A stretch of DNA of 64,000 nt, from assembly GCF_002954445.1 (NCBI RefSeq), contig NZ_MQWA01000001.1:920586-984585 (forward strand), in the 5' to 3' direction. A model generated the notes under the pieces. That model ran no database searches. It saw only the letters and a list, made by a program, of their open reading frames with translations, and was not told where the DNA came from. The DNA is from Rubritalea profundi. Its GTDB lineage: Bacteria > Verrucomicrobiota > Verrucomicrobiia > Verrucomicrobiales > Akkermansiaceae. A program made the position numbers and the translations under genes. Shown piece by piece: positions 4,235-33,408 of the stretch; within the stretch, counting starts at the first letter, position 1; every line of letters begins with the position of its first letter.

Positions 4235-7200
4235 TCAATCATCCAGCTCCAGTGGATCAAAGCCATCGATCGGGGCTTCTTCGGGTTTGTGTACCTTGAG
4301 CAGCACTTTTCCGGCGCGGGCCTGGAGGGCTTTCCATGCGGGGTAATAGCGGAAATCCTTACCAGCGACACCACCGCGTAGCTGAGTGACCTCAATGTAT
4401 TCGATCACGTCTTGGAGTGATTTTGCGGCAATCTTACCATCGGCAGTGCTAGGATTCTTTAAGCCTTCTGCCACATTGATCAAACTGTTCGCAGCGGTCG
4501 GAATGCCTTTTTTCAAGCAATACATCAGAGTCTTCATGGCGCGAGCTTCGTGGATGTGGCCGAGGTATTTGACCATCCGTAGGTCGAGGTTGAGTCGGAG
4601 CATAGCATCGGCGAACTTGAGGGCGTCAGAGTTGGAGACATCTCCGTAACCTTTTGGTCCGACTACCATGCGGCGAACCGCCTGGGCACCCACGAGGCGA
4701 GCTCTGGTCGGGCCAGATGTGGCGATCTCTAGCAGGATCTGGTCAGCCTCGCGGCTCGGTGAGTAGGACAATGCGAAGATGAGCTTTGCAAGCTCCTTCA
4801 TCTCTGCATCGGCAGCAAGCTTTTTGAGTGCTGCCATACTTCCAGCGTCGCCGAGTTGGCCGAGGGTGTAATAGAGTGATGGTCGAACAAGTTCGGAGCT
4901 CTTGGAAAGCATGCCGATGAGGGCCTTGCTGACTTTTGCGACGTGGGCAGCATCGTCACGGCGGGACAGGATGGCCTGTTCGCAACCGCGTAGGTCTTCC
5001 TCAGTCTTGGCATTTTTGAGATGGGCAAGCACATCTGGCAAGAGCTTGTCACCACCGATGTCGAAGGCAGCTATCAGTGCGGCTTGGCGGAGAACTGGAC
5101 TGTCATGACCCATCGCTTGCTTGGCGAGCTTGAGGCCAGCAGTGGACTTGGCAGTGGTTAGCACTTCGAGAATTCCGGCTGCAGATTGTGGGTCTTTGGT
5201 TTTTGCGAAAAGTGAAGTAAGCGTCGCATCGCCGCCAGCAGGAACTAGAGCCAGTGCGAGTTTCTGACTGTGCTGACGCAAGCGCCAGTATTCGTGTCCG
5301 AGGTACGGCAGCAGATCTTGCATGGCATCCTGAGCGAGGGTATCGCTAAGGAAAGTCATCGCTGCCATCTGGCGGAAATAGATTTTGCGTGCGGGGTCCT
5401 TGAGGGTGTCGCGGCAGAGCTTTAGCTTCGCTCCGGTGCCGTCGAGGGCATCGAGTTTGGCTTGGAACATCTTACGTACGTCTGGCTCAATACTCGGTAG
5501 CTTGACCGGATTTTTTGCTGCGACGATGAGTTTGTAGTATTTGTCCAAGCCATAGAGGACCTTCTTCTCGCCCTCGAGAACCATGACCGTCATCAATGGA
5601 TCGTCAATAAGGCTGACGCCGAGAGGTTCGATAAATTCGTAGAAAGCTCCGGGTTGTTTCTCAACCGCCTTTGGAACGACCAGATTTCGCTTGAAGCCAA
5701 CGTGTGGGCGGATGTGGCGTGGGATTGCAGCTTTTTTAAGTGCTCGGTGACCTGCAGCTTGAACAGCCTCGTGGTAGTTAAATTTAGCTAACAGGTTCTG
5801 TGCTGGTTCGCTTCGGTTGGCGAACATTTGGTCGACGATTTGCTCCTCTTCAGCAGCGAAGGTCAGTGGACCGGCGAGCTTGACGATGGTGTCCTTGCCC
5901 CAAACTTTGAGACGTGAGCCCGTGAATGTCTTATGGGCTGGGTCTAAAAGGATGAGACTCTCCAGAGCCTCGTGCACGAGGTCTTCGTCAAAACCTGCTT
6001 CGAAAGGAGTGTTGGAGAGGACGTTGTTTTTACCGAATAGTGCGTATTGGGATGCATTTCTTATGCTATTTGGTGATAAGGCGACCGGATCTTCGATTGT
6101 TGCTCCCAGTATTGCGAGCTGTGTGTCCTCGGCATCGGTAGCTTTGGAAATGACTTTCACTGCGGTGATCTGAACGAAGTCCTTTGGATCGCTAAGAAGC
6201 GGGGTGAGTTTGGAGAGATTTTGCAGTACAGCATCGTTGCCACAGGCTCCGAGGGTGCGTAGGGCTCCATCGCGGAAGCGCGATTCCTCGCTCTTCAGTA
6301 ATGCGACGACGCGAGGGACGATTTCCTTTTCGCCGGCTTGAAAGCGCTTGCCAAGTTCCCTGGCGAAAATGCCTCGGACCTTTGGTTTGAAGATATCGAG
6401 CAGGTCGATGAGTTCATCGGTGCTGCGTTCCTGCCATGGTGTGCCATCAATTTGCTTGAGCCACGGGTCGTTAAATTGCGGCCGCGCGCTAGTCATGAGT
6501 TGCTTCATTTCCCGCTCGGTCGGGTAGAGGTCCTCGTCAGGGTTCTTACCAGTGATGAGGGTCTGCTTGAGGTAAACCGCCTGGTGGAGGATCTCAGTGG
6601 CAGTGGGGTCGCGGAGGGTTTTGTGTTCGATCGTTGGTGAGTGGTAGACAAAGCTGCCGTCAAACATCCGGCAGAGCGTACGGCGCCAGCGGAGGTTGCG
6701 CTCATTGTAGGCGCGGACTTTAGGTCCACACATTCCGGCGGCCCATGACGACCAGTTTCCGTGGTAGTCGTGACCGTGGCCACCGCGGCGGGTGAAGGCA
6801 CAGTGGCTGGACATCATGAAGAAGTATTTGGCGCCGTATTTATCTCCGAGGAGTTTCATGGCGAAGGCGATACCGGTGTTCTTGCCATTACTGTCATCAG
6901 TGGCTGCAGCGCCAAAATCACCATAAGGGATGGCACCTTGGTCGACGTAGGAGCCGAAGAATTTGTGGGCGCGCTCGATAGCTTGGTCGATCTCTGGGTG
7001 TTCGATGCCGAGTTTTTTGGCGAGGGTGATGAGGAAGAAGCAACGGTTACCCGCGGCGTTTAGCGCACCGTAGCCGGGGTTCATGCGGTGAAATTCACCA
7101 CCATTGAAGGATGGGTAGGCGAAGGTGTGTCCCCAACTTCCGCCGGCGCTCTGTCCTAGCGCAGCATCGATGGCGAACTTGCGTAAGGCAGGAAGAACAA

Positions 7201-8209
7201 ACTTGTCGCCAGTGGCTTCATAGTAGAGTGCGCAGTTGAGTCCGGTGAATCCGTGATGCCAGCTCTGGTAGCCCTTGCCACCTCTGTAGCCGGGCTCAAA
7301 CATTGCACCAGCTGGGACTGTAGGCGGGTGCCATTGTCTAGCATCTTTACTACGTACCCAGTCGTGCACGATCTTGCGGTGCTCGGGTTTTCCTGAGGAT
7401 ACTAGGGCTATTGCTTCTATTATACCGCCTCTGCCGCTACGCGGTTGTTTGGGGTCGACCACAAATCTTTTTTCCAATACTTTCCAAGCTTCCTCGAGGA
7501 TCTGAGCAGTCTTCGGGCAGTCGTAGGGAGCGGTGTCGCTGTAGTCGGGGAATACGCGCAGGCTTAGGGCGACTTCCAATGTGCTGGGGATGACTGGGAA
7601 TTCACTAAATCCTTTTGCCTCTTTGCTGCGGGCTTCTTCAGGTTTCCACTCGTAGAGGGTATTGTCATTGCGTGCCTTGTCGAAGAGTTTGTCGATGTCT
7701 ACGCCTGAGACATCCTTTTTGCCGCTGCGCTTGATGTAGTTTTTATCGCGCCAGACCTGGAAGGTGATTTTGCCGGCATTTTTCTCTCGCTCGGCTTCAA
7801 CGATTGCCTTGCCGATGAGTTGGCCGATGTGGCCGCCGGAGACGAACTTCTTGCCATTCATTCCAGTGATGACATCGCCTCTCTGGAATTTCCCATCAGC
7901 GGGTGAACCTTTCAAGGTTGCAACCACCTGGATCTGGTCACCTTTGAATCTATAATCAATCATCTGGCCCACGATGCCTGTTGGCCCTAGGCTCCAGGTT
8001 GGTGGTGGTCCCAGCTTGCTGCCGGTAGGCATAGGGTCGCCTTTGGTGAGGTCGGGCAGATTGCCAGCGCGTTCGGCCTCCTCGCCGAGGTCACCGCCCT
8101 TTTCCAGAGCTTCAATTTGCTCCGGCGTGTGGGTGCGCTCTTCCGCAGAAAGAGGAAAGGTCAAAAGACCCAAGATGAGGGCCGGAGTTAGAAATGGAAT
8201 GGTTTTCAT
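4235..8209 (-). CDS. exported PDZ / DUF6288-type / HEAT-repeat protein
   Basis: 1324 aa. Residues 1-22 form a Sec signal peptide ending LSAEE. A PDZ-like domain covers about residues 65-155 (SPADGKFQRGDVITGMNG). A central alpha/alpha-toroid-like region (about 230-570) carries HGHDYHGNWSSWAAGM and WRRTLCRMFDGSF, which I associate with DUF6288 proteins of Planctomycetes and Verrucomicrobia. From about residue 580 onwards there are HEAT-like helical repeats. It is the last gene of the minus-strand train, 110 bp downstream of the previous gene, and probably works in the periplasm with the ExbB/ExbD-linked complex as a scaffold or processing factor. No catalytic residues can be assigned. The domain name is from memory of the family. 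Confidence 0.75.
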   Translation of the reverse strand: MKTIPFLTPALILGLLTFPLSAEERTHTPEQIEALEKGGDLGEEAERAGNLPDLTKGDPMPTGSKLGPPPTWSLGPTGIVGQMIDYRFKGDQIQVVATLKGSPADGKFQRGDVITGMNGKKFVSGGHIGQLIGKAIVEAEREKNAGKITFQVWRDKNYIKRSGKKDVSGVDIDKLFDKARNDNTLYEWKPEEARSKEAKGFSEFPVIPSTLEVALSLRVFPDYSDTAPYDCPKTAQILEEAWKVLEKRFVVDPKQPRSGRGGIIEAIALVSSGKPEHRKIVHDWVRSKDARQWHPPTVPAGAMFEPGYRGGKGYQSWHHGFTGLNCALYYEATGDKFVLPALRKFAIDAALGQSAGGSWGHTFAYPSFNGGEFHRMNPGYGALNAAGNRCFFLITLAKKLGIEHPEIDQAIERAHKFFGSYVDQGAIPYGDFGAAATDDSNGKNTGIAFAMKLLGDKYGAKYFFMMSSHCAFTRRGGHGHDYHGNWSSWAAGMCGPKVRAYNERNLRWRRTLCRMFDGSFVYHSPTIEHKTLRDPTATEILHQAVYLKQTLITGKNPDEDLYPTEREMKQLMTSARPQFNDPWLKQIDGTPWQERSTDELIDLLDIFKPKVRGIFARELGKRFQAGEKEIVPRVVALLKSEESRFRDGALRTLGACGNDAVLQNLSKLTPLLSDPKDFVQITAVKVISKATDAEDTQLAILGATIEDPVALSPNSIRNASQYALFGKNNVLSNTPFEAGFDEDLVHEALESLILLDPAHKTFTGSRLKVWGKDTIVKLAGPLTFAAEEEQIVDQMFANRSEPAQNLLAKFNYHEAVQAAGHRALKKAAIPRHIRPHVGFKRNLVVPKAVEKQPGAFYEFIEPLGVSLIDDPLMTVMVLEGEKKVLYGLDKYYKLIVAAKNPVKLPSIEPDVRKMFQAKLDALDGTGAKLKLCRDTLKDPARKIYFRQMAAMTFLSDTLAQDAMQDLLPYLGHEYWRLRQHSQKLALALVPAGGDATLTSLFAKTKDPQSAAGILEVLTTAKSTAGLKLAKQAMGHDSPVLRQAALIAAFDIGGDKLLPDVLAHLKNAKTEEDLRGCEQAILSRRDDAAHVAKVSKALIGMLSKSSELVRPSLYYTLGQLGDAGSMAALKKLAADAEMKELAKLIFALSYSPSREADQILLEIATSGPTRARLVGAQAVRRMVVGPKGYGDVSNSDALKFADAMLRLNLDLRMVKYLGHIHEARAMKTLMYCLKKGIPTAANSLINVAEGLKNPSTADGKIAAKSLQDVIEYIEVTQLRGGVAGKDFRYYPAWKALQARAGKVLLKVHKPEEAPIDGFDPLELDD

Positions 8210-8319: not shown

Positions 8320-9480
8320 CTAATCAGCGGTGTTGCCTTGGGAATTGAGGATGAGCGAAAACCCAGTGGCTTTGGCCAGGATGGCAAAATTTTGTTTTTG
8401 GACTTCCGGCATCGGAGTTTTGAGATCCCAGACGACGTGTACGCTTTGTTTTACCTTGGCGCGAGTTTCCTTGCGTTTGGTGAGGAGTTCCAAAAATCGT
8501 TCGATCAACTGCTCGGATCGGGCAGCGGAATCGACAACAAATGAGCTACGTCCAAACCAAATGGTTTCGAAGATGAAATCGTTATCGATGGTTCCAAGCT
8601 CACTCTCGGCCCGCAGGACATCGACCTTTTCCCGGCACAGTGACACGCGGCGAAATGACTCGGGGATCTTGGCGGTGGATTCCTTGTCATCGGTAAGATA
8701 AACAAATGAATCACCACGCTTGGCTAGTCTGGCCAAATCGGCAGGACTGGGCCGTTCGACTACGACTGGCAGCGGCGTCAGGCCATTGAGCCAGGCACTT
8801 GGCAACGACAGGGGAAATGATTCCTTGCCATAGATGTTGGCTCGTTTCAGATAATCATAACCGACCATGACAAGTCCCAAGGCGATAAGAAATCGAATGG
8901 TTTTCAGGTTTAGGGAATCCAAACGATGTGCCATTGCTAGATCCTCCTCCATCATCACCACGGGAACGGCTTCTTCCATGCCCTCGAGAAATTCCGAGTC
9001 GGCGGCTTTGATCGCATTTCCGCCTCCGACTGCCGACTCGACACTGCCGTCATCGACACCGCCTGCGGTGCGGGATTTCTTTCCTTTTTTCCAATCTGGG
9101 GTACCCGTCTTGTTGACCTGGTCCATATATTTCAGGTCGTCTTGCTCCATTCCTGCGCGGTCGAGCGAATCACTGGCGGAGTCCTCGGCGAAGCGGACAT
9201 CTGAGAGGTCCTTGCCGCGGCTATCCTTGATTGCCTGGCGGCTTGCTTCTTCCAGTGCCTGTTGGGCGGCGATCTCCTCGCTGCGGTCAGGTTGGATCAG
9301 GTTGACGTAGTTTGTTGAGTTATGTCTGGCAAAAAAGAATGCAACGATGGCCAGCATCAATGCCATCGGGCAGAGCCAACGACGTGGTCCAGTAATAGCA
9401 TAGATCACCCACAGGATGGGCACCACACCCCATAGAAATACGCTGATGTATCCAGCTAGATTAAAGAAATCTGAGTTCAT
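8320..9480 (-). CDS. membrane protein of the ExbB/D-linked operon, unknown function
   Basis: 386 aa, not recognised. Hydrophobic segments lie at about residues 10-30 (FLWGVVPILWVIYAITG), 35-52 and 193-212. Between the second and third is a charged, Asp/Ser-rich soluble stretch. The C-terminal 170 residues are soluble with alternating beta and helical character. It overlaps the DUF4159 gene by four bases (ATGA), so it is translationally coupled to it and likely belongs to the same inner-membrane complex. Confidence 0.6.
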   Translation of the reverse strand: MNSDFFNLAGYISVFLWGVVPILWVIYAITGPRRWLCPMALMLAIVAFFFARHNSTNYVNLIQPDRSEEIAAQQALEEASRQAIKDSRGKDLSDVRFAEDSASDSLDRAGMEQDDLKYMDQVNKTGTPDWKKGKKSRTAGGVDDGSVESAVGGGNAIKAADSEFLEGMEEAVPVVMMEEDLAMAHRLDSLNLKTIRFLIALGLVMVGYDYLKRANIYGKESFPLSLPSAWLNGLTPLPVVVERPSPADLARLAKRGDSFVYLTDDKESTAKIPESFRRVSLCREKVDVLRAESELGTIDNDFIFETIWFGRSSFVVDSAARSEQLIERFLELLTKRKETRAKVKQSVHVVWDLKTPMPEVQKQNFAILAKATGFSLILNSQGNTAD

Positions 9481-11090
9481 TTTTTAAGTTTTGAGATGGT
9501 ATCATTCCACTGGGTGAAGGAATAGTAGATCAAGTTGATGCCGAGGTTCATCGCGGCATCGCGCATCTCGGGGCTGACGTCTGTGTAGTTCTGTGATTTC
9601 CAGGCGTCATTCATATCACCGGGGTGGTAGAATGCGATCCAGCGTCCGTCATGTTTGATGCCGAGCGCACGGCGACCACCGTGGTGCCAGAATGCGGGTG
9701 CACCTTCGGGGAATCCGTTAGGAAGCTGGTAAAGCATGTCATCATCCGGGATATCGATCAGGGCTTTATCGGGGAACACTTGACGCATTAATTGGATAAA
9801 TGAGTGGTGGAAATTGCGATGACCGGCATCGGCGATGAGCATCCCGCCGTTGATGCAGTACTCTCGCAGGATTTTGATATCCGCCGAGCTGACGCGCCCC
9901 ATGCGGTCGTTGCCGGTCAGATAAACGAAGGGAGGAAATCCGTCCTTCGGGTATTTCTTGAGTAGCGAGATCGAGTGGCTCTCACCTTTGCGGGCAATTT
10001 TCTTAAATCCGGTAGCCTGTGAGAAAGCGCGGAGGAAATTGATGTCGGCTCCAGTTTGGTTCATACCGTCGTCCCATCCGGCTCCACCGTGTTCGAGACG
10101 GATAAAGCGGATCTTGTATTTATCCATACCCTCGGGCCAACCGCCATCTTTGCCGCCACCTTTGCCCATTTTACCAGCTTTGCTGTTTGTTGCTGAGTAG
10201 GTGACCTGGGTTTTTTCTTCCAGTTGTTCATCGACTTCGGTGCTGTCGAGGTCTGGCTGGTCGAAAATGATCGCGGAGTTAGGCCGCAGGCTGAGAGTTT
10301 TTTTCTTTTTCTTTTTCGGTTTCACCATCTTGACCATGGCGACAACCGGGTTGCCGCTTCCTTTGGGCACGCGGTAGGCTTCGACACATCCGCCGAGGCT
10401 GAGGAGATAGGGGATAAGGACAAGGATGATCAGGTGAGTCATGCCACTGGCGTAGAGGCTGCGGCGGTGACGTGGGTCGCGGCCGTGGGTGCGAATGTCC
10501 TCGAGCACGCGGTCACCGACCATGGGGTTGCCAGCAACGCGGGTGAATGCCGCATAAACCGAACGGCTGCGCATCATGGCGTGTAGCCAGCCGGCGTAGA
10601 GGCCGACAGCGAGAGCCGGCCAGCATGCTTTCCACCAGAATTTAAAGATGGTGGCACCATCTTGTTTGACACCACCCATTTCTAAGCCTTCAGCTTTGAT
10701 AGAGAAAACCCCCTGCCAGGTGAAGTAAACGTAGCAGGCGACCGCCAAGTAGACGGTCCACATTGAGGCGCGCAGAAAATGGTAAGTCACCCGGTTGCGC
10801 ATGAGACTCGACAAACCAGCCAGGGAACATGCTCCGGCCATGATGGCAAAGAGCAAGAAACAAAACTCTAGTGATTTGGTGGTGCCGTTATTTTCCCAAA
10901 GAACAGAGACTGACGGGTTTTGTGACAGAAAACTAGCTAAAACCGGAGGGCCCCAAGCCCACGCCGCCGCCCCAAGTCCGAGCAGCATGAACGCAGCCAC
11001 GCTGACGATACGCGCTTTAGAGGCGGACGCTCGGGTTGGAATCTCATCGATCCACTCTTCGGGGATCTTGCTCTGGTTCTTTTTGTTCAT
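9477..11090 (-). CDS. DUF4159 domain membrane protein
   Basis: 537 aa. The N-terminal half contains about five membrane segments (for example VAAFMLLGLGAAAWAWG near residue 31). The C-terminal ~210 residues match DUF4159: IRFIRLEHGGAGWDDG, then FVYLTGNDRMGRVS, LREYCINGGMLIADAG and a closing RWIAFYHPGD. DUF4159 resembles a glutamine-amidotransferase-like fold without an obvious nucleophile. In planctomycetes and verrucomicrobia the domain often sits in envelope gene clusters. Here it lies between ExbB/ExbD/anchor genes and the DUF6288 protein, so a structural or regulatory role in the envelope complex is likely. The family assignment is good; the function is unknown. Confidence 0.75.
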   Translation of the reverse strand: MNKKNQSKIPEEWIDEIPTRASASKARIVSVAAFMLLGLGAAAWAWGPPVLASFLSQNPSVSVLWENNGTTKSLEFCFLLFAIMAGACSLAGLSSLMRNRVTYHFLRASMWTVYLAVACYVYFTWQGVFSIKAEGLEMGGVKQDGATIFKFWWKACWPALAVGLYAGWLHAMMRSRSVYAAFTRVAGNPMVGDRVLEDIRTHGRDPRHRRSLYASGMTHLIILVLIPYLLSLGGCVEAYRVPKGSGNPVVAMVKMVKPKKKKKKTLSLRPNSAIIFDQPDLDSTEVDEQLEEKTQVTYSATNSKAGKMGKGGGKDGGWPEGMDKYKIRFIRLEHGGAGWDDGMNQTGADINFLRAFSQATGFKKIARKGESHSISLLKKYPKDGFPPFVYLTGNDRMGRVSSADIKILREYCINGGMLIADAGHRNFHHSFIQLMRQVFPDKALIDIPDDDMLYQLPNGFPEGAPAFWHHGGRRALGIKHDGRWIAFYHPGDMNDAWKSQNYTDVSPEMRDAAMNLGINLIYYSFTQWNDTISKLKK

Positions 11091-11147: not shown

Positions 11148-11612
11148 TTAGTTAAAAAGGTCTTCTTCGTCGTCTTCAGGTTTAGGCGTAGTTGGTCCGA
11201 CGGCCTTTGTCTCGAGTTCCTTCTCGATGGAAGACTTCGGGGTCTCGGAATCGGTGCCCGAGTCGTCTTGAGAGGCCTTGGTGCTGGCATTATTAGTCTT
11301 AGGCGCCTTGGGCGCCTTGGGTGTGCCACCGGCGAGTTTACTACTGAGGTCTTGGGGTTTCAGCCCGTGTTCTTCAGCTATCTCACGCAGGACAGCAGTG
11401 GCTTTACGCATTGCTGTCTCGGTTCTCTCTTTTTCGCTCATCTCGGAAGCATTCTCCCCGACGACCATTTTATAGAGGTAGGGAAAGCTCGTTCCGGCCA
11501 ATAGGACGGCGTGTATGATCAAGGTAAAGATGATGATCGACTTTAGGCTACTGCCCTGGAAGTGCTTCATCAGCTGATCAGGTGTTGTTTCTTCTTTCAG
11601 TGTATCTGACAT
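11148..11612 (-). CDS. TonB/TolA-like single-pass anchor protein (short)
   Basis: 154 aa. A short cytoplasmic N-terminus is followed by one membrane helix (SIIIFTLIIHAVLLAGTSF, about residues 25-45) containing a His as in the TonB/TolA signal anchor. Then come a charged helix and a Lys/Pro/Ala- and Ser/Asp-rich tail. It lies directly downstream of two ExbD genes and one ExbB gene, where TonB or TolA would be expected. No recognisable TonB C-terminal domain is present, so it may transmit motion to a different periplasmic partner, or may only be an accessory subunit. Confidence 0.55.
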   Translation of the reverse strand: MSDTLKEETTPDQLMKHFQGSSLKSIIIFTLIIHAVLLAGTSFPYLYKMVVGENASEMSEKERTETAMRKATAVLREIAEEHGLKPQDLSSKLAGGTPKAPKAPKTNNASTKASQDDSGTDSETPKSSIEKELETKAVGPTTPKPEDDEEDLFN

Positions 11613-11660: not shown

Positions 11661-12077
11661 TTACTGTATTTCACCGACGGCTTCAATGATGCCGCCACCT
11701 GCGGCAATCGCCTTGATGACCGGTTCGAATGTTTCTTTGGGCAGTGCGCTATCGCACTTGAACTGGACGTGACGTTGATCGTCAGAAATGGTCTCCGTGA
11801 GAAGTGCCCTGATGCCCCACTCGACGTCTTTCGCGCTATCGACGTTGACGCCGTCGAAATAGATGTCGCCATTTTTGTCGACTGCGACTCGAGCCACGAC
11901 GGTGAGCTCTATCTTTTTGACGTATTCGGAGATCGGCAATACGACATCCATTTCTTTATCCTTCGACGCCTCGCTGCAGACCATAAAGAAAATGATCAGC
12001 AGGAATGCGATGTCGCCCATGCTAGCAATGGGCACGGGGACAGGTCGACGTTTCTTACTTTGGAGTCGTTTCTTCAT
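11661..12077 (-). CDS. biopolymer transport protein ExbD/TolR (second copy)
   Basis: 138 aa, the normal ExbD length. A basic cytoplasmic start is followed by one membrane helix with the essential proton-channel Asp in SMGDIAFLLIIFFMV. A periplasmic domain with VARVAVDKNGDIYFDG follows. ExbD works with ExbB as a proton-motive-force-driven stator. It ends before the TonB-like anchor and starts 2 bp downstream of another ExbD gene, so the operon encodes an ExbD pair that may form heterodimers. Confidence 0.9.
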   Translation of the reverse strand: MKKRLQSKKRRPVPVPIASMGDIAFLLIIFFMVCSEASKDKEMDVVLPISEYVKKIELTVVARVAVDKNGDIYFDGVNVDSAKDVEWGIRALLTETISDDQRHVQFKCDSALPKETFEPVIKAIAAGGGIIEAVGEIQ

Positions 12078-12079: not shown

Positions 12080-12496
12080 TTATTTATCGTCCTCGACGAT
12101 GGCTACAACTCCCTGGTTCGCACTGATGCCGGCGAGGACCTGAAAGTAGTTTTCGTAAGGGGTTCCTTTGGTGGACTCCAGCATGATTACGCGTTTTGAG
12201 GGGATCTTCTCACCTAAATTCAATTCTGCGAGGCGCTCGTTGAGTAAATCGACGCTCACCTTTTTATCGTTAAAAAAGATCTCGGATCCGCGCAGGTTGA
12301 CGATCGGCGTTTTGTCCGACTGGGTCTGGCTTGATTTCTCTCCCGACGGCAGGTCAGCGGCGATCGTTTTCACCTTCACCAGTGTGGTAGCCACAAGGAA
12401 GTAGATGATGAGCAGGAATGCGATATCAGAGAATGAGCCGGTCGGGATTTCTCCTGAGCGGTGCTTTTTCTCCTTGCTGTAGCGTTTTCTCGACAT
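12080..12496 (-). CDS. biopolymer transport protein ExbD/TolR (first copy)
   Basis: 138 aa, the same length as its neighbour. The membrane helix GSFSDIAFLLIIYFLVA holds the conserved Asp. The periplasmic part includes PIVNLRGSEIFFNDKKVS, typical of ExbD. It differs clearly from the adjacent ExbD, so this is an old duplication rather than a recent one. It is six bases from the ExbB gene and two from the next ExbD. Confidence 0.9.
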   Translation of the reverse strand: MSRKRYSKEKKHRSGEIPTGSFSDIAFLLIIYFLVATTLVKVKTIAADLPSGEKSSQTQSDKTPIVNLRGSEIFFNDKKVSVDLLNERLAELNLGEKIPSKRVIMLESTKGTPYENYFQVLAGISANQGVVAIVEDDK

Positions 12497-12502: not shown

Positions 12503-13147
12503 TTAGTGGTGGGTGAGGATAAACTCGACCACTTCGCTAGTGCCTTCTTCGATTTCGAGTTCGATTTCGTCACTCCAGCGGTTGAACACACTCTGTGGAA
12601 TAACGGCCAACAGGGCGACGATTAGTCCGACGGCGGTGGTTACCATGGCTTCAGCGATTCCGTCAGCTACGGCGCCGCCGCTACCGCCGACGCTTCCAGC
12701 ATCTGCGAGGCCGGCGAAGGAGGCTATCATACCGGTGACGGTACCAGTCATTCCCAGAAGAGGGGCTGCTGTACCGATGGTGGTGAGGACGTCGAGACGT
12801 TTGTTCACCACACTCATAGCTTGTGCGCTGTAGTCTTCCATTACTTGGCCGACAACGAGACGCATAGTCTCTGAGCTTTCCTCTTTCCCATGAAGGTGGG
12901 AATAGGAACGAAGACCAGCGAGTAGGACCGAAGCAATCGGGCCGTTGGATGATTCACACTCGGTGACGGCACCCTGTATATCGTTATTGCGCAAGTGAGT
13001 GAGTACCTTGGAGCGAAGTGCTCTGGTGTCAGTCTTGCGGTTCACGCGGAAAGCCGTCCAGCGGTCATAGACGACAGCTAGGCTTATCAGGCTGCAAATA
13101 ACCAATGGGACCATGATAGGTCCGCCTGTTAAGATTTTTTCTAACAT
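12503..13147 (-). CDS. MotA/TolQ/ExbB proton channel family protein
   Basis: 214 aa. The first membrane helix is GPIMVPLVICSLISLAVVYD. The conserved MotA/TolQ/ExbB core contains the helix pair TIGTAAPLLGMTGTVTGMI and AMVTTAVGLIVALLAVIPQ. A large cytoplasmic loop lies between helices 1 and 2, as expected. With the two ExbD proteins it should form a proton-driven stator in the inner membrane. Its location just downstream of giant TPR envelope proteins suggests it energises that machinery, not only a classical siderophore receptor; no TonB-dependent receptor gene is seen nearby. Confidence 0.92.
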   Translation of the reverse strand: MLEKILTGGPIMVPLVICSLISLAVVYDRWTAFRVNRKTDTRALRSKVLTHLRNNDIQGAVTECESSNGPIASVLLAGLRSYSHLHGKEESSETMRLVVGQVMEDYSAQAMSVVNKRLDVLTTIGTAAPLLGMTGTVTGMIASFAGLADAGSVGGSGGAVADGIAEAMVTTAVGLIVALLAVIPQSVFNRWSDEIELEIEEGTSEVVEFILTHH

Positions 13148-25697: not shown

Positions 25698-25726
25698 CAG
25701 GTTTTTGCGCTTGAGTTGGACTTTTC

Positions 25727-28700
25727 CTAAGAGGATTTTGGCTTCGCGTGGTTTGGTTCGCGGGCAAGGATGGACTCGATATCATCGGCTGCGTCATCGT
25801 ATTCTTCCATGTCGTAGTTGACGACGGCGCGGGCGTAGCGGGCGGGTGACCACATCTCTGGGATGCGTTCGAGCTCTAGTAGGCCGAGGGTTTTTAGAGC
25901 TGAGTCAAAGTCTTTTCCAATACGCTCGGCGTCGGCTTTGCGCAGGGTGGCCTGGTAACGGGCGACGACACCTTCGTAGGCTTTATTTTCCTGGGTCTTG
26001 GTATAAATCTGATGGGCTTCGCGGAGCTGTCCGCGCTGCATGGCGATGTCACCGTAAGCGATTTCGAGGCCAATTTTTTCTTCGGGAGTGAGCGGTGATG
26101 TTGGCTCGGCGGACCAGGCTAGGAGGGCCTTGACGAGGTCTTCCTGGCGGGTTTCATCGCGGCTGTAGATCACGCGTTGGAGTGCCCAGTTAAGGTAGCT
26201 GACGTTGAGTTCGCGGATCGTGGGGATGAGATGTTCCCAGTTCTCATCGCAGAGTTCCCAGGCGGAGTCTTCATTTCCGGTCAACCAATCGCCTTGGGAT
26301 TTGTAGATCGGATAAGTTGGATCATTTTTAGCCACTGGGATCACCATCAAGCCCATGTTCATTGCTGCTTGGCTACGGAGGGTTTTGAGTACGCGGGTGT
26401 CACGTGTGGGATCGACTTTATGCTTTTTATTAACTGGCTGCGGAGGAAAAACCGCCTGCCCGGTCAGCGCCATAGCGTAGGCAGCGGACGGTTGTTCGTC
26501 TGCAAGAGATTTAGCAAAGGCGAGTGTTTGTGGGAGGTAACCTTGGTAACGAATCACCCGCATGCTGTCCCATAAAAAGTAAGCAACTTTGTGAATGACG
26601 ACCGGGTCCTGTTTCTCCTGGATGGTTGTGAGCAGGATCAAGGGGTTCGCTTCTCCGGCGGCGGGTATGATTCTGAGTTCGATGAGATCGACGATCAGGC
26701 TGAAGACTTTCGGGTCGGATAACACGGCTGCATCGAGGGCACAGATCTGAGCCGAGGCATTAATCTCGAAGCGAACCGGTGATTTCTTAGCACCATCGAT
26801 CGCCTTGGTCAGAGCGGCGACGGCGGTTGCGACATCGACCTTGGCGGCGGCAGGTGATGTATCGCCCTTCTTGGGTGCGACGGCAGCCTTCTTAGGCAGT
26901 GCCAATAGGTCTTTGCAGACGATTAAGGGATCGGATGAGTCGACGACGGCTAGCTGAGCCGGAGTAGTGAGTTCTTTTTTGAACCACTGACGGGCACCGC
27001 TATGTACGGCACCGGAAAGTGTTTTCCATGATGGAGATTTGACGAGAGCTTGGATCAGTTTGACCTGTTCAACATTGTCCTCTGGGTACTGCATGTTGAT
27101 CCATGCCATGACCTTCCATGATGCGAGACTATTGCGTTTCAAGTCGTCGGCGACGGATTTGCGCAGTGCGGCTTCGAGTGGGTGCGGCACGCATTTTTTA
27201 GGGAAACGTTTTTTCAGTTCGAGTACATTGTCACTGCGGGTGTGGCGCTGGGCGAGGAAGAGAATGCCGGGGGCGTACTTGGAGGCGTTTACCTTGTTGG
27301 TGGTTTCGATTTCAGCCCAAACTGGGTCGGTACTAGACATTCCGGTGACGATTGCGTTGCGCGCAAGTTGCTGAGCTGCGACGCTCTGGTCAGCGAGTAA
27401 TTCTGGAATGGCCTCTGGAGTGAATGCTAGAACTTTTACGAGTCGCTCGTGGACACTAGGGATTTTAGGTTGTGCTGATTTGTAGTCTGCCCAGAATTTT
27501 CTGAACACGGAGAGACGCTTAGCGGCTGGGTCCTCCTTCTTGGCATCCACGGTGGAGATTCCACCGCCAAGGGCCGCCCATTTTACGGCCCATTTCTTTT
27601 TTTCCTCATCAGTCGGCTTAGCACCGCAATATTTGCTAAGGGGGCCGTATATAGAAGCATTGCGTTGGTCATGGTGCTGGGGAAGACGCCATGCCTCAGG
27701 GCCCACGATAGCCGTTAGCGCTTTGTCAAAATCCTTGTCCTTGCCTGCAGCAACCGCCGCGAGGATGAGTGAGGCTTGCTGGCGGGAGTTTTGCGCAAGG
27801 TGCGGGACGAGTTGTTGAAGCTGCTCGAATGTGAGTTGACTCCATGGCTTTTCTAACAACACAGGACTCGTCCGGCTGTTCATTAGCTTCGGGTTGGCCT
27901 TGATGTAGTCCTGCACTGCATTGACCTTAGTCGGGGTAGCCTCCTTATGGTGATAATAATTGGGATTGCCCCAAGACGGCATGAGACCGGCGAGTTGAAT
28001 CGGGGTGAGTTTAGGAACAGCGGCGATGATCGGTGCCATTTTAGAGTCAATGTCATCGGCCCAGTATTTCGCCATGTCGCCTCGGTAATGTCGGCTATTG
28101 CCTCCGCCTCCCCAGCCGTTTTGTACCCAGAGGGCGTAGTGTGGGTATTTCGAGAGCAGCGCCTTGGCTTCGGCGAGCGGTGGTAAAATCACCTTGCCAG
28201 CAATCTTCGCCTGGTTGTAGGCTTTGACCGATACCGCCCAGTCGATGCGCAGTGCCATCTCCGGGTTAAAACTCATCACTTTGGAAAGTTGTTTGCAGTT
28301 GGTGACGAGTTCTGCGGTGACAGGGGCAATCCCGGGCATCTCGACGTAGCTGCTGAGGTTCTCTAGCAGCCAGTTGAAATAGCTACTGTAGCGGACGAGT
28401 AACAGGTCGGAGGGAAGCCCGGCCTTGATGCCGGCGTGCAGTCGGGCGGCCACGGCGGCGGAGTCCTTGCGGCGGACGGCTTCATCGAGGAACCAGGAGT
28501 CGAACTGGCGCGCACGCGGGCAGACCATGACACGATTTCCCTCGTTGCGGCCGAAAGCGTAGGCACCACTGACGTCCTTGAGACGGTGGATCAGGAGTGA
28601 GTAAACTCTATAGACAGCATCATCGGCAGTGGCGGATTTGAGGTCAGCTTTTTTAAGGTATTGTTGGTAGAGTGCTGTGCCATTTTTCCAATCGCCGCTG

Positions 28701-29038
28701 AGCTCTGCGGCTTGACCGGCGTAGTAGAGCAGCATGCCATCTTTCGGCATGTTTTGGCGTAACCATTTCTGGGTTTCGGCAATGGCCTGGGTGGGCTTTC
28801 CTTCCTTGATTCCAGCTTGCAGCAGGGAAATGATCGCCTTTTCAGATTGGGTTTCGATGGATGCTGTTACAGCCTTGCGTTGCTCGTCGAAAGTCGCGGC
28901 GGTGGCTGGCACAGCCAGTGAGCCGAAAACTACAAGCCCCAGAGAGACGCCAAACATTCGAACCCCCTTACCAGAAGATCTTTTATCAGTTCTGGTGGTG
29001 ATGGCATTACCGGGGGTGGAGTGTGTTGATTTTGTCAT
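25727..29038 (-). CDS. N-terminal part of giant TPR/beta-domain protein 2 (frameshifted)
   Basis: 1103 aa in this frame. The signal peptide core is MFGVSLGLVVFGSLAVPATA; its Met at 28957 is preceded by AAGGGGG five bases away, a good ribosome-binding site, so 28957 is a likely true start rather than 29038. Then about 1,000 residues of helical repeats, with TPR-like units near the end (ARYARAVVNYDMEEYDDA). The frame stops at 25727 only because of the one-base loss near 25745; the homologous position in protein 1 reads through. The product is exported and paralogous along its length to 16195-20883, showing a tandem duplication of the giant gene. Confidence 0.75.
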   Translation of the reverse strand: MTKSTHSTPGNAITTRTDKRSSGKGVRMFGVSLGLVVFGSLAVPATAATFDEQRKAVTASIETQSEKAIISLLQAGIKEGKPTQAIAETQKWLRQNMPKDGMLLYYAGQAAELSGDWKNGTALYQQYLKKADLKSATADDAVYRVYSLLIHRLKDVSGAYAFGRNEGNRVMVCPRARQFDSWFLDEAVRRKDSAAVAARLHAGIKAGLPSDLLLVRYSSYFNWLLENLSSYVEMPGIAPVTAELVTNCKQLSKVMSFNPEMALRIDWAVSVKAYNQAKIAGKVILPPLAEAKALLSKYPHYALWVQNGWGGGGNSRHYRGDMAKYWADDIDSKMAPIIAAVPKLTPIQLAGLMPSWGNPNYYHHKEATPTKVNAVQDYIKANPKLMNSRTSPVLLEKPWSQLTFEQLQQLVPHLAQNSRQQASLILAAVAAGKDKDFDKALTAIVGPEAWRLPQHHDQRNASIYGPLSKYCGAKPTDEEKKKWAVKWAALGGGISTVDAKKEDPAAKRLSVFRKFWADYKSAQPKIPSVHERLVKVLAFTPEAIPELLADQSVAAQQLARNAIVTGMSSTDPVWAEIETTNKVNASKYAPGILFLAQRHTRSDNVLELKKRFPKKCVPHPLEAALRKSVADDLKRNSLASWKVMAWINMQYPEDNVEQVKLIQALVKSPSWKTLSGAVHSGARQWFKKELTTPAQLAVVDSSDPLIVCKDLLALPKKAAVAPKKGDTSPAAAKVDVATAVAALTKAIDGAKKSPVRFEINASAQICALDAAVLSDPKVFSLIVDLIELRIIPAAGEANPLILLTTIQEKQDPVVIHKVAYFLWDSMRVIRYQGYLPQTLAFAKSLADEQPSAAYAMALTGQAVFPPQPVNKKHKVDPTRDTRVLKTLRSQAAMNMGLMVIPVAKNDPTYPIYKSQGDWLTGNEDSAWELCDENWEHLIPTIRELNVSYLNWALQRVIYSRDETRQEDLVKALLAWSAEPTSPLTPEEKIGLEIAYGDIAMQRGQLREAHQIYTKTQENKAYEGVVARYQATLRKADAERIGKDFDSALKTLGLLELERIPEMWSPARYARAVVNYDMEEYDDAADDIESILAREPNHAKPKSS

Positions 29039-29106: not shown

Positions 29107-29769
29107 TTACTCGCCGCTGGAATTTGCGGACTCCGCCTCGATGCCTGCGAGTTTGCTGCGGGCTTCGGTGATATGTTTGCTCGATGGGTAATCGGAGATT
29201 AGCTGGCGGAGTTTTGCCTTAGCAATCTCGTTATCGCCCATGCGGTAACCTACATTCGACCAGAGGAGGAGCATCTCATCGAGGAAAGCAGCGTCTGGGT
29301 AGTCGTTAAATACGCTGTCGAGCAGGTCGGCAGCAATCGAGAAGTTCTCCGTATCGACGTGGTGGCGAACGACGCGACCGAGTGATTCGGCGGCGAATGA
29401 GCTCTCAGGGTAGGTCTCGTAAGTCCTGCGGTAAGCGGCGATGGCACCACCCATGGCTCTCTGCAAAGCACTGGCGGCAGAAAGTCCACCTTCACCCCAT
29501 TTACTGTTATGTTGGTCGGCGGCCTTGATGGATTCCTCAGCTTGCTTCTGGAGGACTTCACCGATGCGGTACTGAGCCTCAGCTGCAGAAATCGGGTTCT
29601 GGAGCTCGAGCACACGTTTGTAGGATTCGACAGATTTCACATAATCACCTTTATCGGCGAGGCTGCGACCTAGAGTCATCAGCGCTTGGTCAGCGAGGAC
29701 GGATTCTGGGTAGAGTCGGTTAAATGCCAGACATGTGGCTGTAGCGGACTCAAAGTCAGCCTTGAGCAA
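29107..29769 (-). CDS. C-terminal part of TPR protein 3 (frameshifted)
   Basis: 220 aa from the first in-frame Met. The frame is open upstream to about 29845, where IILNRAKLPGDLVENSFKLK leads into the annotated start. TPR units follow: FNRLYPESVLADQALMTLG, YVKSVESYKRVLEL, YPESSFAAESLGRVVRHH, YPSSKHITEARSKLAGIE. The segment belongs to the gene at 29679-31457. A lost base near 29844 (GAC-CAATC, expected GAC-CCAATC) separates the two. Merged gene 29107-31457, about 783 aa. It is probably periplasmic. Confidence 0.7.
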   Translation of the reverse strand: MLKADFESATATCLAFNRLYPESVLADQALMTLGRSLADKGDYVKSVESYKRVLELQNPISAAEAQYRIGEVLQKQAEESIKAADQHNSKWGEGGLSAASALQRAMGGAIAAYRRTYETYPESSFAAESLGRVVRHHVDTENFSIAADLLDSVFNDYPDAAFLDEMLLLWSNVGYRMGDNEIAKAKLRQLISDYPSSKHITEARSKLAGIEAESANSSGE

Positions 29770-31457
29770 TTCACTTTCCCATTTGAGTTTAAAGGAATTT
29801 TCGACCAGATCACCTGGAAGTTTTGCTCTATTGAGGATGATTGGTCGATTTTTGCGAGGGCTTCCTTAGCGCGCAGTGCGGCGCGTTGGTCGAGTCCCAT
29901 GTCCTTATAGATTCCACCTAGACCGGTGAGGGCCTCGGCTTCGACTGAGCTTTTACGGGCTTTGAGTAGGGCGTCGAACACAACGTACTGATCGGCTGAG
30001 ACACCCGAGTTCACGGAACCGGAAACCTTGATGGTCGCCTCGCTCTCACGTGGTTCATCACCGTAGAGGTGGACTTCATCTGTGTAGGTGACACGGAGTT
30101 CGTCTAGCTCGTTGGTGTGGAGAACCCCGTCGTCCATTATTGGCTCTACTCCTTCTTCGAGCGGGGCCAGCTTGATTCTTCCAATAAAGTTACCGGTGCG
30201 AATTTCTGGGCCGTCGCCGGTTTCTACGAGTGTTACCGAGATACTGTCGCGTACTTTCCAGACCTCTTTTTCGTCGTCTTCGAGAGCGAAGATATCGATG
30301 GCGTCAGCGGATTCTCCGTTGGCCTGGGCTTCAACTTTGTAGCGGGAGGTGACGGTGAGTGTGATTTTTTCTGCGCCGGGTGTTTTATCGAGGTCGGCAT
30401 CGCGAAGCATAAGCACCTGCGGTTGGCCTGGGTAGGCGATGTAGGCTGGGGTGGAGTAGTCACCGAGGTAGAAACCAACAGTTCCAGTGCTCACAGCGCG
30501 GACCTTACCGGTGCGTGGCACGCCTTTTTTGCCGTCCATCGTGCTATCGTCAAGGTAAGTCACGGTTATTGTATCGCCACCGATCATTTGCAGGACTCCG
30601 TCGCCAGGTTTGGCATCGCCTAGGGCAGTGGGTGCAGATGCGAGCATTTCGTGTTTTTTGCCAGCAATGGGCACGCCGGTGATGATTTCGGTATCGCCAC
30701 TGCTGACGGCAATTGTTGCGGTAATCGGCTGACCGAGCTTGCGCATGACGGGCACGTCGGCGTCTTCGATTTTGGCGTAAAAGCGCTGACCTATCTCGAT
30801 TCGGCCGAGTTCTTCACCCGCGTCCTCGACTTCGGTACCAACCAGAGAAAGCGAGTCGATCGCCTTGTTCCAGTTTTTCAAATTGTAGTGGCTCATGCCG
30901 ATGTAGTAGTAGGCTTTGTTGGCCCACTTGGTTTTACCGGCGACCTCGGTGAGGCGGCGGAACAAGGGGAAACACGCGGAATACTGGCCACCTTGGAATT
31001 GGCTAAATCCAGCTTGGAATAGAGCCTCGTGGTAGAGTTCTTGCTTGGTTTCAGCTTGTTCCTCACCTGGTACTGGTGCGAGTAGACGGGTGAGCAGGAG
31101 AAAGTGACTGAGCGCCTCTTTGTTTTTATGGAGACCTAGATAATGCTTACCCATGGACATGTGAGCCATGTGGGCGAGTGTGGTGCCTTGATTGTCGCGC
31201 ACAACGGTATTGAGCATGGCGAGGCCACGTTCGTATTGCTTGTAATCCATCAACTCCATCGCCTTGTCGTAGAGGTGCTTGGCGCGGCGGTCGATATCCG
31301 AAGAGGCACGGGAACGTGGAGCTGCGTCCTTCTTTGCTTTGTCTTTACCCTGTGCTTGGGAAGCTACGGGCGTAGCCAAGCAAAGTGCCAGAAGGATCAG
31401 TGTTGAGTTGATGTTCACGAAGCTAGAACGTTTCATTGTCATATAAAATTTCATCAA
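29679..31457 (-). CDS. N-terminal part of exported TPR protein 3 (frameshifted)
   Basis: 592 aa in this frame; the last ~55 residues after ALAKIDQ are out of frame and not part of the real protein. The signal peptide is near the N-terminus (SFVNINSTLILLALCLATPVASQAQ), possibly starting at a later Met (MKRSSFVN). TPRs cover about residues 60-210 (YDKAMELMDYKQYERGLAML). Beta domains of the operon's type follow (VSSGDTEIITGVPIAG; RDADLDKTPGAEKITLTVTS; VTLVETGDGPEIRTGNF). It shares its beta modules with the two giant proteins, so all three probably assemble together. Confidence 0.75.
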   Translation of the reverse strand: MMKFYMTMKRSSFVNINSTLILLALCLATPVASQAQGKDKAKKDAAPRSRASSDIDRRAKHLYDKAMELMDYKQYERGLAMLNTVVRDNQGTTLAHMAHMSMGKHYLGLHKNKEALSHFLLLTRLLAPVPGEEQAETKQELYHEALFQAGFSQFQGGQYSACFPLFRRLTEVAGKTKWANKAYYYIGMSHYNLKNWNKAIDSLSLVGTEVEDAGEELGRIEIGQRFYAKIEDADVPVMRKLGQPITATIAVSSGDTEIITGVPIAGKKHEMLASAPTALGDAKPGDGVLQMIGGDTITVTYLDDSTMDGKKGVPRTGKVRAVSTGTVGFYLGDYSTPAYIAYPGQPQVLMLRDADLDKTPGAEKITLTVTSRYKVEAQANGESADAIDIFALEDDEKEVWKVRDSISVTLVETGDGPEIRTGNFIGRIKLAPLEEGVEPIMDDGVLHTNELDELRVTYTDEVHLYGDEPRESEATIKVSGSVNSGVSADQYVVFDALLKARKSSVEAEALTGLGGIYKDMGLDQRAALRAKEALAKIDQSSSIEQNFQVIWSKIPLNSNGKVNCSRLTLSPLQPHVWHLTDSTQNPSSLTKR

Positions 31458-31644: not shown

Positions 31645-33408
31645 TTACTCCTCGGCCTCGGCTTCACCTCCGGTGAGTGCCACGCCGTAGCGCTCGAGAC
31701 GGTTGTGCGCTTCACTGGACTCGCCACTTTTTGGGTAGCGCCGCAGAACCATCCGAAGTTGTTGGACTTCCTTGCCTTTGTTGCCGCTGATACGGTAAAT
31801 ATCGGCAATTTTCAAACTTGCGCTGGAAGCAGTGGAACCGCCGACGGACTCAAGCCCTTGGACAGTCTTGACTGCTTCTGAGTACTGCTTGAGAGCGACC
31901 ATGCAGTCGGTGACTCCCCATGTTGACTGAGGTTGCTTATTTGCCACACGGTAGGCTTTGATCGCCTCATCATAACGACCAAGCCCCTGAAGGAGTACGG
32001 CCTGAGACATGCCGAGCGCCTGACCGGCATACTTTGGGGATTTTTGCAAAATTGGCATCTCTTGGAGAGCTTTCTCCATGAACGGGCGGTTGCGGTGAGT
32101 CCGTGCATTGTAGTAATCGAAACGAGATTTTGCAGCGAAGGTCTTATCCTTCATTTTTGCAAAATAGCGCAGCACGAAGTCCTCTGGCTCGTAAAGAGCC
32201 GCAAAGTTGGTGAGTTTGAGAATTTCCTCATCATTCATACCTTGAATACTAACCGAGCGCATGACCGTCCTTGACTCCTCATTCATCCTCAAGCTCCTCA
32301 ATTGATTCATGAGAGCCATTTTCTCAGGATTTTTCAAGCCACCGAGAAATGCTTTACTTTGACTAGCAAAGAAATTCGAACGCATTTTAGGGTCGACGCC
32401 GTAATAGCCAGACCATTTCAACACGCGTGCGAGAGTGGCTGGCTGGAGTTTGTATTGTTTCTCCATCCCAGCGAGCCAGCTTTTGCTGTCCTTTTCGTAG
32501 ACATTCTGGAGATCAATCCATTGCTTGCGCAGGTCATCGTTATCGGTAAATCGGTCCCCCATTTTGGCGCTCCAGTAGCGGGCGGCTTTCTCCTTTTTCT
32601 CCAACTCCGCTCCTGCGGGCATTCTCAGGGACGTATTCAGGACGGTCGACCAGTAGCGATTGTCTTCGTTGGGCTTGTCAGTTTTTTGGCCACGGCCATC
32701 AAAACCACCAGCCTCGACGTAGAACTTCTGGAGTTTGTCGTTATTTTGACTGCGAGTGACGTAATGGGCAAGTACCGCGTTGCGGGCTGCAGCGGCTGCC
32801 TGATGATTCGTTTTGGAAAATGCTACCGCTGTGCGCCAGTGGTACTCTGCGGCTTCCTCGAATTTCCCGAGCTTTTGCATGGCTCCGCCGAGGTATGTGA
32901 GAGCTGTGCCGGAGTTTGGCTGGGCGACATAGTCGTCATCCTTGACCATTTTTGCCCAAACCGCATTTTGCTTGGCGGTGTCACCATTTTGCTGATGGCA
33001 TTGGCCCATGTAAAAGAGCGCTCCGGCAGCGTAGCTGACATCATCTGGGAAATAATCCACGACATCTTGGTAGGCCTTGATCGCGGCGTGACGTTTGTCG
33101 ATCATGTGCAGACAACGTCCCATCCGCAGCAGAACATAGGGAAGTGCCTTGCTCTTTACGAACTCGAAGGAATAGGCCTTGTAGGCTGCGTAGGCTCCTT
33201 TGTAGTCGCGCTTTTTATAAAGTTTGTCTGCATCCTCGAGATTCAAACCCTCGAAGGTATCTAATTTAGAAAATTCCTTTGGCGGGTAGGTGATTTCCTG
33301 ACCCGCCCGATTAGCTGAGCATACCGAGACACTTAAAGTAGTTAAGGCCAAACATGCCACTGCTGTCCGGCAAGTACTGCCAATTCTTTGGAAATTATTC
33401 TGTCTCAT
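31645..33408 (-). CDS. exported TPR protein, first gene of the envelope operon
   Basis: 587 aa from the Met at 33408 (MRQNNFQRIG), preferred over the track start at 33552 because it gives a normal signal peptide (TAVACLALTTLSVSVCSA) and lies just behind a strong promoter at 33440-33468. TPR repeats fill most of the protein (DADKLYKKRDYKGAYAAYKAY; YFPDDVSYAAGALFYMGQCHQ; GRYDEAIKAYRVANKQP). The C-terminal tail is acidic. It lacks the beta domains of its neighbours. As the first gene it may supply an outer-membrane-associated or periplasmic adaptor for the complex. Confidence 0.75.
   Translation of the reverse strand: MRQNNFQRIGSTCRTAVACLALTTLSVSVCSANRAGQEITYPPKEFSKLDTFEGLNLEDADKLYKKRDYKGAYAAYKAYSFEFVKSKALPYVLLRMGRCLHMIDKRHAAIKAYQDVVDYFPDDVSYAAGALFYMGQCHQQNGDTAKQNAVWAKMVKDDDYVAQPNSGTALTYLGGAMQKLGKFEEAAEYHWRTAVAFSKTNHQAAAAARNAVLAHYVTRSQNNDKLQKFYVEAGGFDGRGQKTDKPNEDNRYWSTVLNTSLRMPAGAELEKKEKAARYWSAKMGDRFTDNDDLRKQWIDLQNVYEKDSKSWLAGMEKQYKLQPATLARVLKWSGYYGVDPKMRSNFFASQSKAFLGGLKNPEKMALMNQLRSLRMNEESRTVMRSVSIQGMNDEEILKLTNFAALYEPEDFVLRYFAKMKDKTFAAKSRFDYYNARTHRNRPFMEKALQEMPILQKSPKYAGQALGMSQAVLLQGLGRYDEAIKAYRVANKQPQSTWGVTDCMVALKQYSEAVKTVQGLESVGGSTASSASLKIADIYRISGNKGKEVQQLRMVLRRYPKSGESSEAHNRLERYGVALTGGEAEAEE

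What the first reader, a model, noticed from the sequence alone, without database searches (positions are those of the whole stretch)
4235..33408. ~29-kb minus-strand gene train: giant TPR/beta proteins coupled to ExbB, two ExbD, a TonB-like anchor, DUF4159 and PDZ/DUF6288 proteins
Seen: one strong promoter, then genes in one direction with tiny gaps or overlaps. They encode four exported TPR proteins (two of ~2500 aa), a proton-driven stator (ExbB + 2 ExbD), a short TonB/TolA-like anchor without a TonB C-domain, two membrane proteins and an exported PDZ/HEAT protein. No TonB-dependent receptor is present. Known: ExbB/ExbD harvest proton motive force to do work in the envelope. Inference: this is an energised envelope-spanning machine for uptake or handling of large polymers. 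From memory, a comparable TPR + ExbB/D layout was tied to mucin uptake in Akkermansia; I could not check this.
Basis: partly seen in the sequence, partly recalled or inferred. Interest (0 to 1): 0.85.

Follow-up and report, generated by a model that had tools for sequence, protein, structure and literature searches.

The report
Proton-driven envelope machine with giant proteins
A block of twelve genes, kept in the same order in many environmental relatives of the gut bacterium Akkermansia, appears to encode a proton-powered motor coupled to two giant exported proteins; it is a good, untested candidate for how these bacteria energise the handling or import of large sugar polymers.

Summary
In this assembly three of the TPR genes are broken by frameshifts; in nine relatives both giants are single open frames. 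The order is complete in eight other genomes, and ExbB-ExbD-ExbD-anchor-DUF4159 recurs in Verrucomicrobiota, Planctomycetota, Lentisphaerota and Kiritimatiellota. New clue: the anchor and, in the window's clade, the DUF4159 protein both carry a TonB/TolA-like [S/T]xxxH motor-docking signature, so each motor probably drives two transducers. The giants contain a predicted PA14-type sugar-binding fold. A PMF-driven trans-envelope machine is likely; glycan import is inference. It is not a Ton or Tol-Pal system, and it is absent from the probable gut Akkermansia genus, so the mucin-locus parallel is not supported as orthology. The class (TPR + TolQ + two TolR + unusual transducer in PVC bacteria) was sketched in 2025; the DUF4159 transducer, paired anchor and giants appear new.

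The parts
31645..33408 (-). TPR1, exported TPR protein (587 aa; YbgF/CpoB-like TPRs, below family cut-off)
29107..31436 (-). TPR2, exported TPR/beta protein, split here by a frameshift at about 29780-29840; one ORF of about 810 aa in G202
   Evidence: start at 31436 inferred from the signal peptide
21174..29038 (-). GI1, giant exported protein (N-terminal alpha-solenoid, Ig/PA14-like beta region, C-terminal CpoB-like TPR); frameshift at about 25740; 2504-2621 aa in relatives
13520..20883 (-). GI2, tandem paralogue of GI1 (31% identity over full length in G202); frameshift at about 16260-16300; 2185-2470 aa in relatives
   Evidence: start at 20883 inferred from the signal peptide
12503..13147 (-). 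ExbB/TolQ-type motor subunit (214 aa)
12080..12496 (-). ExbD1/TolR-type subunit with conserved TM Asp
11661..12077 (-). ExbD2/TolR-type subunit, distinct from ExbD1 (about 26% identity), conserved TM Asp
11148..11612 (-). Anchor (154 aa): single TMH with FTxxxH, low-complexity periplasmic part, conserved acidic DLF end; no TonB_C or TolA domain
9477..11090 (-). DUF4159 membrane protein (537 aa): N-terminal TM bundle, TMH 206-231 with SxxxH, disordered basic linker 232-324, Rossmann-like C-terminal domain; candidate second transducer
8320..9480 (-). m386, membrane protein without family match; start overlaps the DUF4159 stop
4235..8209 (-). Exported DUF6288 + HEAT protein (1324 aa); PDZ-like N-terminal part not called by Pfam

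Best explanation
The locus encodes a dedicated proton-motive-force machine spanning the envelope. Shown or well supported by sequence: an ExbB/TolQ-type motor subunit with two different ExbD/TolR subunits; next to it two proteins with a transmembrane helix that carries the [S/T]xxxH signature with which TonB and TolA dock on the motor (the short anchor and the DUF4159 protein, which has the TMH - disordered linker - globular domain plan of a force transducer); and exported giant solenoid/beta/TPR proteins encoded beside them. Inferred: proton flow through ExbB/ExbD1/ExbD2 moves the anchor and the DUF4159 arm, which pull on or remodel the giant proteins through their CpoB-like TPR ends. The PA14/Ig beta arrays of the giants hold a surface or periplasmic ligand, most likely a large glycan, for import into or handling in the periplasm without a TonB-dependent receptor.
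For: Complete 12-gene synteny in 8 other genomes and partial loci in 4 more. DUF4159-only search: 57 of 61 hits with enough upstream DNA have ExbB then two ExbD upstream; three of the four others are exported orphans, and the fourth (L161) fails only through an overlapping-frame match. [S/T/A]xxxH in the anchor TMH of 61 of 61 loci where it was found and SxxxH in the DUF4159 TMH of 38 of 38 window-clade loci and 21 of 38 others, against 3 of 199 ExbB/ExbD control helices (rows are related, so counts are not independent). Conserved ExbD Asp and ExbB TM Thr residues. AF2: TM bundle + TMH + disorder + Rossmann domain, best PDB match 4i66. Giant beta region: PA14 carbohydrate-binding folds, Foldseek probability 1.00 for MpPA14; S-layer and YbgF similarity. 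CCCP-sensitive uptake of dextran into the planctomycete periplasm has no known machinery (PMC5394234); fucoidan accumulates inside marine Akkermansiaceae cells (PMC13174399).
Against: No outer-membrane barrel or secretin is encoded in the train, so the outer-membrane route is unknown. The only glycan evidence is one moderate-confidence model (mean pLDDT 64) and orphan paralogues; sulfatases are not enriched around the locus itself (near 4 of 12 A loci). The paralogous B branch has mostly lost the His in both candidate transducers, and some D types have lost it in the DUF4159 protein. Three frameshifts leave open that the locus is decaying in this strain. No expression or interaction data.
Confidence: 0.45

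Rival explanations
1. A Tol-Pal-like envelope module: the motor and CpoB-like TPR proteins stabilise or constrict the outer membrane, or coordinate wall and outer-membrane growth, with no role in uptake.
For: ExbB scores higher with TolQ (105 bits) than with ExbB (73 bits); C-terminal TPRs of GI1 and those of TPR1 match tol_pal_ybgF at 4e-21 and 1e-16.
Against: Patchy: 41 of 211 family genomes carry any DUF4159 system, unlike a housekeeping division system. No TolB, Pal or TolA domain in the train. All scores lie below the Tol family cut-offs.
Confidence: 0.2
2. A machine for surface display, adhesion or gliding: the motor moves or exports the giant S-layer-like PA14/Ig proteins on the surface, as suggested for vWA transducers in PVC bacteria.
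For: Giant beta domains resemble an anammox S-layer glycoprotein (3e-7) and adhesin-type PA14 folds (Flo5, Epa1). PMC12204202 proposes a gliding-like role for related motor-transducer clusters.
Against: No surface-anchoring domain, no known gliding gene and no secretion channel in the train.
Confidence: 0.2
3. It is the aquatic counterpart of the Akkermansia muciniphila mucin-utilisation locus MUL1.
Against: The probable Akkermansia genus (g3) has four stator loci, each with a separate counterpart elsewhere in this genome; none matches the window system, and no g3 genome listed has its DUF4159. PMC13174399 calls MUL1 Sus-like and absent from aquatic genomes.
Confidence: 0.04
4. An ordinary Ton system whose TonB-dependent receptors lie elsewhere in the genome.
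For: ExbB/ExbD present; two TonB-receptor plug matches elsewhere in the genome.
Against: No TonB C-terminal domain on the anchor or DUF4159 protein; the anchor ends in a short acidic DLF tail; two non-identical ExbD with giant proteins are not the Ton layout.
Confidence: 0.05
5. The locus is a decaying remnant in this strain: the three frameshifts are real mutations.
For: Three coding breaks in three of the four TPR genes.
Against: Frame breaks also occur in unrelated loci of the same genome (ExbB at C1:2163k, DUF4159 paralogues at 847k and 1653k), as expected from indels in an assembly. All other genes of the train are intact.
Confidence: 0.15

Closest known systems
PVC TolQ-TolR-TolR + TPR + vWA force-transducer clusters (Mol Biol Evol 2025, PMC12204202)
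   Same: TPR gene, TolQ-like gene, pair of different TolR-like genes, then an inner-membrane protein with motor-docking His TMH, disordered linker and globular periplasmic domain; PVC bacteria
   Different: C-terminal domain is DUF4159 (fold match 4i66) and not a recognised vWA; a second short SxxxH anchor; two giant PA14/Ig/TPR proteins; DUF6288 protein; orf114; m386
Ton system (ExbB-ExbD-TonB + TonB-dependent receptor)
   Same: ExbB/ExbD families, TMH with [S/T]xxxH
   Different: no TonB C-terminal domain, no receptor, two different ExbD
Tol-Pal system (TolQ-TolR-TolA-TolB-Pal-CpoB)
   Same: TolQ-like ExbB, CpoB-like TPR segments
   Different: no TolA domain III, TolB or Pal; giants; patchy occurrence
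Akkermansia MUL1 mucin locus
   Different: no orthologue in the probable Akkermansia genus; counterparts of that genus's stator loci lie elsewhere in this genome
Hoch_4089, PDB 4i66 (Haliangium ochraceum)
   Same: same predicted fold as the DUF4159 domain (TM-score 0.77 by target length)
   Different: solved as an isolated protein of 200 residues; function not stated in the match

Membership tests
Ton system | ExbB and ExbD proton-channel subunits | tested here: met
   PF01618 and two PF02472 matches, conserved Asp and Thr positions
Ton system | TonB with C-terminal domain | tested here: not met
   anchor and DUF4159 protein have no TonB_C match
Ton system | TonB-dependent receptor in the locus | tested here: not met
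   no Plug/barrel in the train; 2 plug matches elsewhere in the genome
Tol-Pal system | TolQ and TolR subunits at family cut-off | tested here: not met
   TolQ 105.5 of 221 bits, TolR 29 of 127 bits
Tol-Pal system | TolA, TolB and Pal in the cluster | tested here: not met
   no Pfam matches in any gene of the train
Tol-Pal system | CpoB/YbgF TPR protein | tested here: inconclusive
   75.7 of 90.1 bits for the GI1 C-terminus, 61.2 for TPR1
PVC vWA force-transducer clusters (PMC12204202) | TPR gene, TolQ-like gene and two different TolR-like genes upstream of the transducer | tested here: met
   description
PVC vWA force-transducer clusters (PMC12204202) | transducer TMH with SHLS motif and conserved His | tested here: inconclusive
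   S/T-x3-H half met; the L and S of the second half are not at TonB spacing in the anchor (TonB spacing from own knowledge)
PVC vWA force-transducer clusters (PMC12204202) | vWA-fold C-terminal domain | tested here: not met
   Pfam DUF4159 only; Foldseek finds 4i66 and no vWA among the top 50.
Akkermansia MUL1 | orthology of stator/TPR genes with an Akkermansia locus | tested here: not met
Bacteroidota Sus-like uptake | SusC/SusD pair | tested here: not met
   no such Pfam match in the train

The most novel reading that the evidence does not exclude
A PVC-wide, proton-driven trans-envelope importer for macromolecules, independent of TonB-dependent receptors, in which one ExbB pentamer with a heterodimer of ExbD1 and ExbD2 drives two different transducers (a short SxxxH anchor and a DUF4159 arm) that work giant glycan-binding solenoid proteins; this would be the missing energiser of selfish polysaccharide uptake in Verrucomicrobiota and Planctomycetota.
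Probability: 0.25. Interest if true: 0.88.

Novelty: new variant of a known kind. Interest (0 to 1): 0.62.

Why it matters
How PVC bacteria bring large polysaccharides through the outer membrane is open; in Planctomycetes the process is stopped by the uncoupler CCCP (PMC5394234), which fits a PMF-driven machine. This locus is a conserved, clearly delimited candidate with specific residues to test (His of two TMHs, Asp of two ExbD). It also extends the set of candidate force transducers beyond TonB, TolA and vWA proteins, and suggests that one motor can serve two transducers.

Tried and rejected
Promoter and terminator scans: promoter-like sites not above shuffled sequence; terminator-like sites mixed (20 against a mean of 12.9 in one region, 13 against 17.5 in the other), none decisive. 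Programmed frameshifting: rejected, because nine relatives have uninterrupted giants and unrelated loci of the same genome are also broken. Anti-phage defence: one weak PADLOC hit only. Sulfatase enrichment around the main locus: not found; it holds only for two orphan exported DUF4159 genes. Direct sequence matches of the DUF4159 protein or the giant to solved structures: none. Reading the Davey 2023 and Hughes 2025 papers: not held. Proving that g3 is Akkermansia through PDB identity: inconclusive. Alignment A3 contains one junk row that I added by mistake (L053:1-100); it is ignored and was removed before the profile.
Full report
What is there. The window lies at G000:C1:920586-984585 of a 4.17-Mb, 4-contig genome. 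The nearest named relatives of its DUF4159 gene are Akkermansiaceae MAGs. On the minus strand, from 33408 down to 4235, lie TPR1, TPR2, two giant proteins (GI1, GI2), a 114-aa ORF, ExbB/TolQ, ExbD1, ExbD2, a 154-aa anchor, a 537-aa DUF4159 membrane protein, a 386-aa membrane protein (m386) and a 1324-aa exported DUF6288/HEAT protein. From GI2 to m386 the gaps are 58 nt or less, and the DUF4159 stop overlaps the m386 start by four bases. Gaps of about 208 nt (TPR1-TPR2) and about 290 nt (GI1-GI2) remain. In several relatives GI1 and GI2 overlap by four bases, which argues for one operon; transcription itself was not tested. Promoter-like sites are no more frequent than chance.

Frameshifts. The 2500-aa proteins are not open frames in this assembly. 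GI1 breaks near 25740, GI2 near 16260-16300 and TPR2 near 29780-29840. In nine other genomes both giants are single open frames (GI1 2504-2621 aa, GI2 2185-2470 aa). Other unrelated loci of this genome also carry breaks, so assembly indels are the likeliest cause, but real mutation is not excluded.

With the window proteins as tblastn queries, the complete order is found in eight genomes (G202, G247, G150, G238, G223, G263, G245, G279) and in four further loci cut by contig ends or by the stretch fetched (G252, G255, G292, G043); ExbB is 72-93% identical. The missed ORF (orf114) is conserved at 46-73% in all twelve. A separate search of species-representative genomes with the DUF4159 alignment alone found 246 relatives, of which 79 distinct best loci were kept. 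Of the 61 loci with at least 3.2 kb upstream, 57 have ExbB followed by two ExbD on the same strand. Three of the other four are exported orphan DUF4159 proteins, and the fourth (L161) fails only through an overlapping-frame match. The organisms are Verrucomicrobiota, Planctomycetota, Lentisphaerota and Kiritimatiellota. Four arrangements are visible: A (the window type, two giants), B (a paralogue with one giant of about 2400 aa; its DUF4159 part is also in this genome at C1:1653k), C (giant-like sequence plus orf114 upstream, about 40-47% identical in DUF4159) and D (TPR2-like gene directly before ExbB).

Distribution. The system is accessory: DUF4159 of this kind occurs in 41 of 211 family genomes (8 of 14 genera) and 27 of 388 phylum genomes, and in no other listed genome of the window's own genus. 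The genus g3, probably gut Akkermansia (2.2-3.3 Mb, near-complete, several sialidases), has none in the lists. Its four stator loci have separate counterparts in this genome. The window system is therefore not the orthologue of an Akkermansia system. According to PMC13174399, MUL1 is Sus-like and has no synteny in aquatic Akkermansiaceae; the original MUL paper was not held. The DUF4159 tree (FastTree, quick) places several Planctomycetota and Kiritimatiellota MAGs inside the window clade, which suggests transfer of the whole locus between phyla; mis-binning cannot be excluded for the short contigs.

Anatomy and mechanism. Both ExbD proteins keep the transmembrane Asp and ExbB keeps invariant TM Thr positions. 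The anchor is one TMH followed by a low-complexity tail ending in an acidic DLF motif; F29, T30 and H34 are invariant in 11 sequences. Across the 61 loci in which it was found, the TMH always has His with S, T or A four residues before it. The DUF4159 protein has an N-terminal TM bundle, a further TMH (206-231) with S215 and H219 invariant in the ten A-type rows, a disordered lysine-rich linker and a Rossmann-like domain whose only strong structural match is 4i66, Hoch_4089. SxxxH is present in 38 of 38 A loci and 21 of 38 others, against 3 of 199 best TMHs of ExbB/ExbD used as control. TonB and TolA bind their motors through a Ser-x3-His signature in the TMH (established knowledge; the conserved Ser/His motif is restated in PMC12204202). 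The economical reading is that one motor serves two transducers, and the two different ExbD subunits may reflect that asymmetry. That last step is inference.

The giants are tandem paralogues (31% identity over full length). Each has a signal peptide, an N-terminal helical solenoid, a beta region and C-terminal TPRs (domain limits by inspection). The GI1 TPRs resemble YbgF/CpoB (4e-21, below the family cut-off) and a beta domain resembles an anammox S-layer glycoprotein (3e-7). An AF2 model of the first 620 residues of the GI1 beta region (window 23838-25697; mean pLDDT 64) matches PA14 domains of carbohydrate-binding proteins: MpPA14 with sucrose, Flo5, Epa1A and GH31 xylosidases. A second, weak glycan hint is that orphan exported DUF4159 domains of the window clade lie among sulfatases, with a GH2 enzyme in one case, in two genomes. 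Around the main locus sulfatases are not enriched.

Function. A PMF-driven trans-envelope machine is well supported by homology and anatomy (about 0.75). The work it does is not shown. Import or handling of large glycans is my leading reading (about 0.45 for the full chain), because PVC bacteria take up large polysaccharides into the periplasm, in Planctomycetes by a CCCP-sensitive route without known machinery (PMC5394234; PMC13174399), and because the giants carry a predicted sugar-binding fold. A Tol-Pal-like envelope role and surface adhesion or gliding are the main rivals. The outer-membrane step has no candidate in the train.

Known or new. PMC12204202 described PVC clusters of TPR, TolQ, two TolR and a vWA transducer. 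The present locus shares that layout but differs in the DUF4159 domain, the additional SxxxH anchor, the giants, orf114, m386 and DUF6288. No paper in the library mentions DUF4159. I file it as a new variant of a known kind.

Noticed in passing
L132:4983-5903, L134:4869-5720, G000:C1:847.4-848.3k: Exported orphan DUF4159 proteins (signal peptide + linker + domain, 67-68% identical to the window domain in L132 and L134), these two among sulfatases; a broken copy is in this genome.
   Followed up: partly
L042 (G000:C1:1640000-1659999), L043-L047: Paralogous B-type locus (TPR2-giant-ExbB-ExbD-ExbD-anchor-DUF4159-TPR) whose anchor and DUF4159 TMHs mostly lack the His.
   Followed up: partly
L104, L108, L112, L114, L116: Planctomycetota MAG loci with the A-type neighbourhood nested among Verrucomicrobiota (L116 on a 164-kb contig): possible cross-phylum transfer of the whole locus.
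   Followed up: partly
G000:C1, several loci: Frame breaks in unrelated genes of the same assembly (stator ExbB at 2163k, DUF4159 at 847k and 1653k), suggesting indel errors.
   Followed up: partly
window 1482-3517: FAD-binding protein followed by a type III polyketide synthase-like gene, unrelated to the train.
   Followed up: no
window 47459-50602 and 42438-43781: RND efflux pump gene and LptF/LptG family permease beyond the upstream end of the train.
   Followed up: no
L062:9475-19602: In the closest relative G202 the train is preceded by a sulfatase, an alpha-L-rhamnosidase and a melibiase-like gene.
   Followed up: partly
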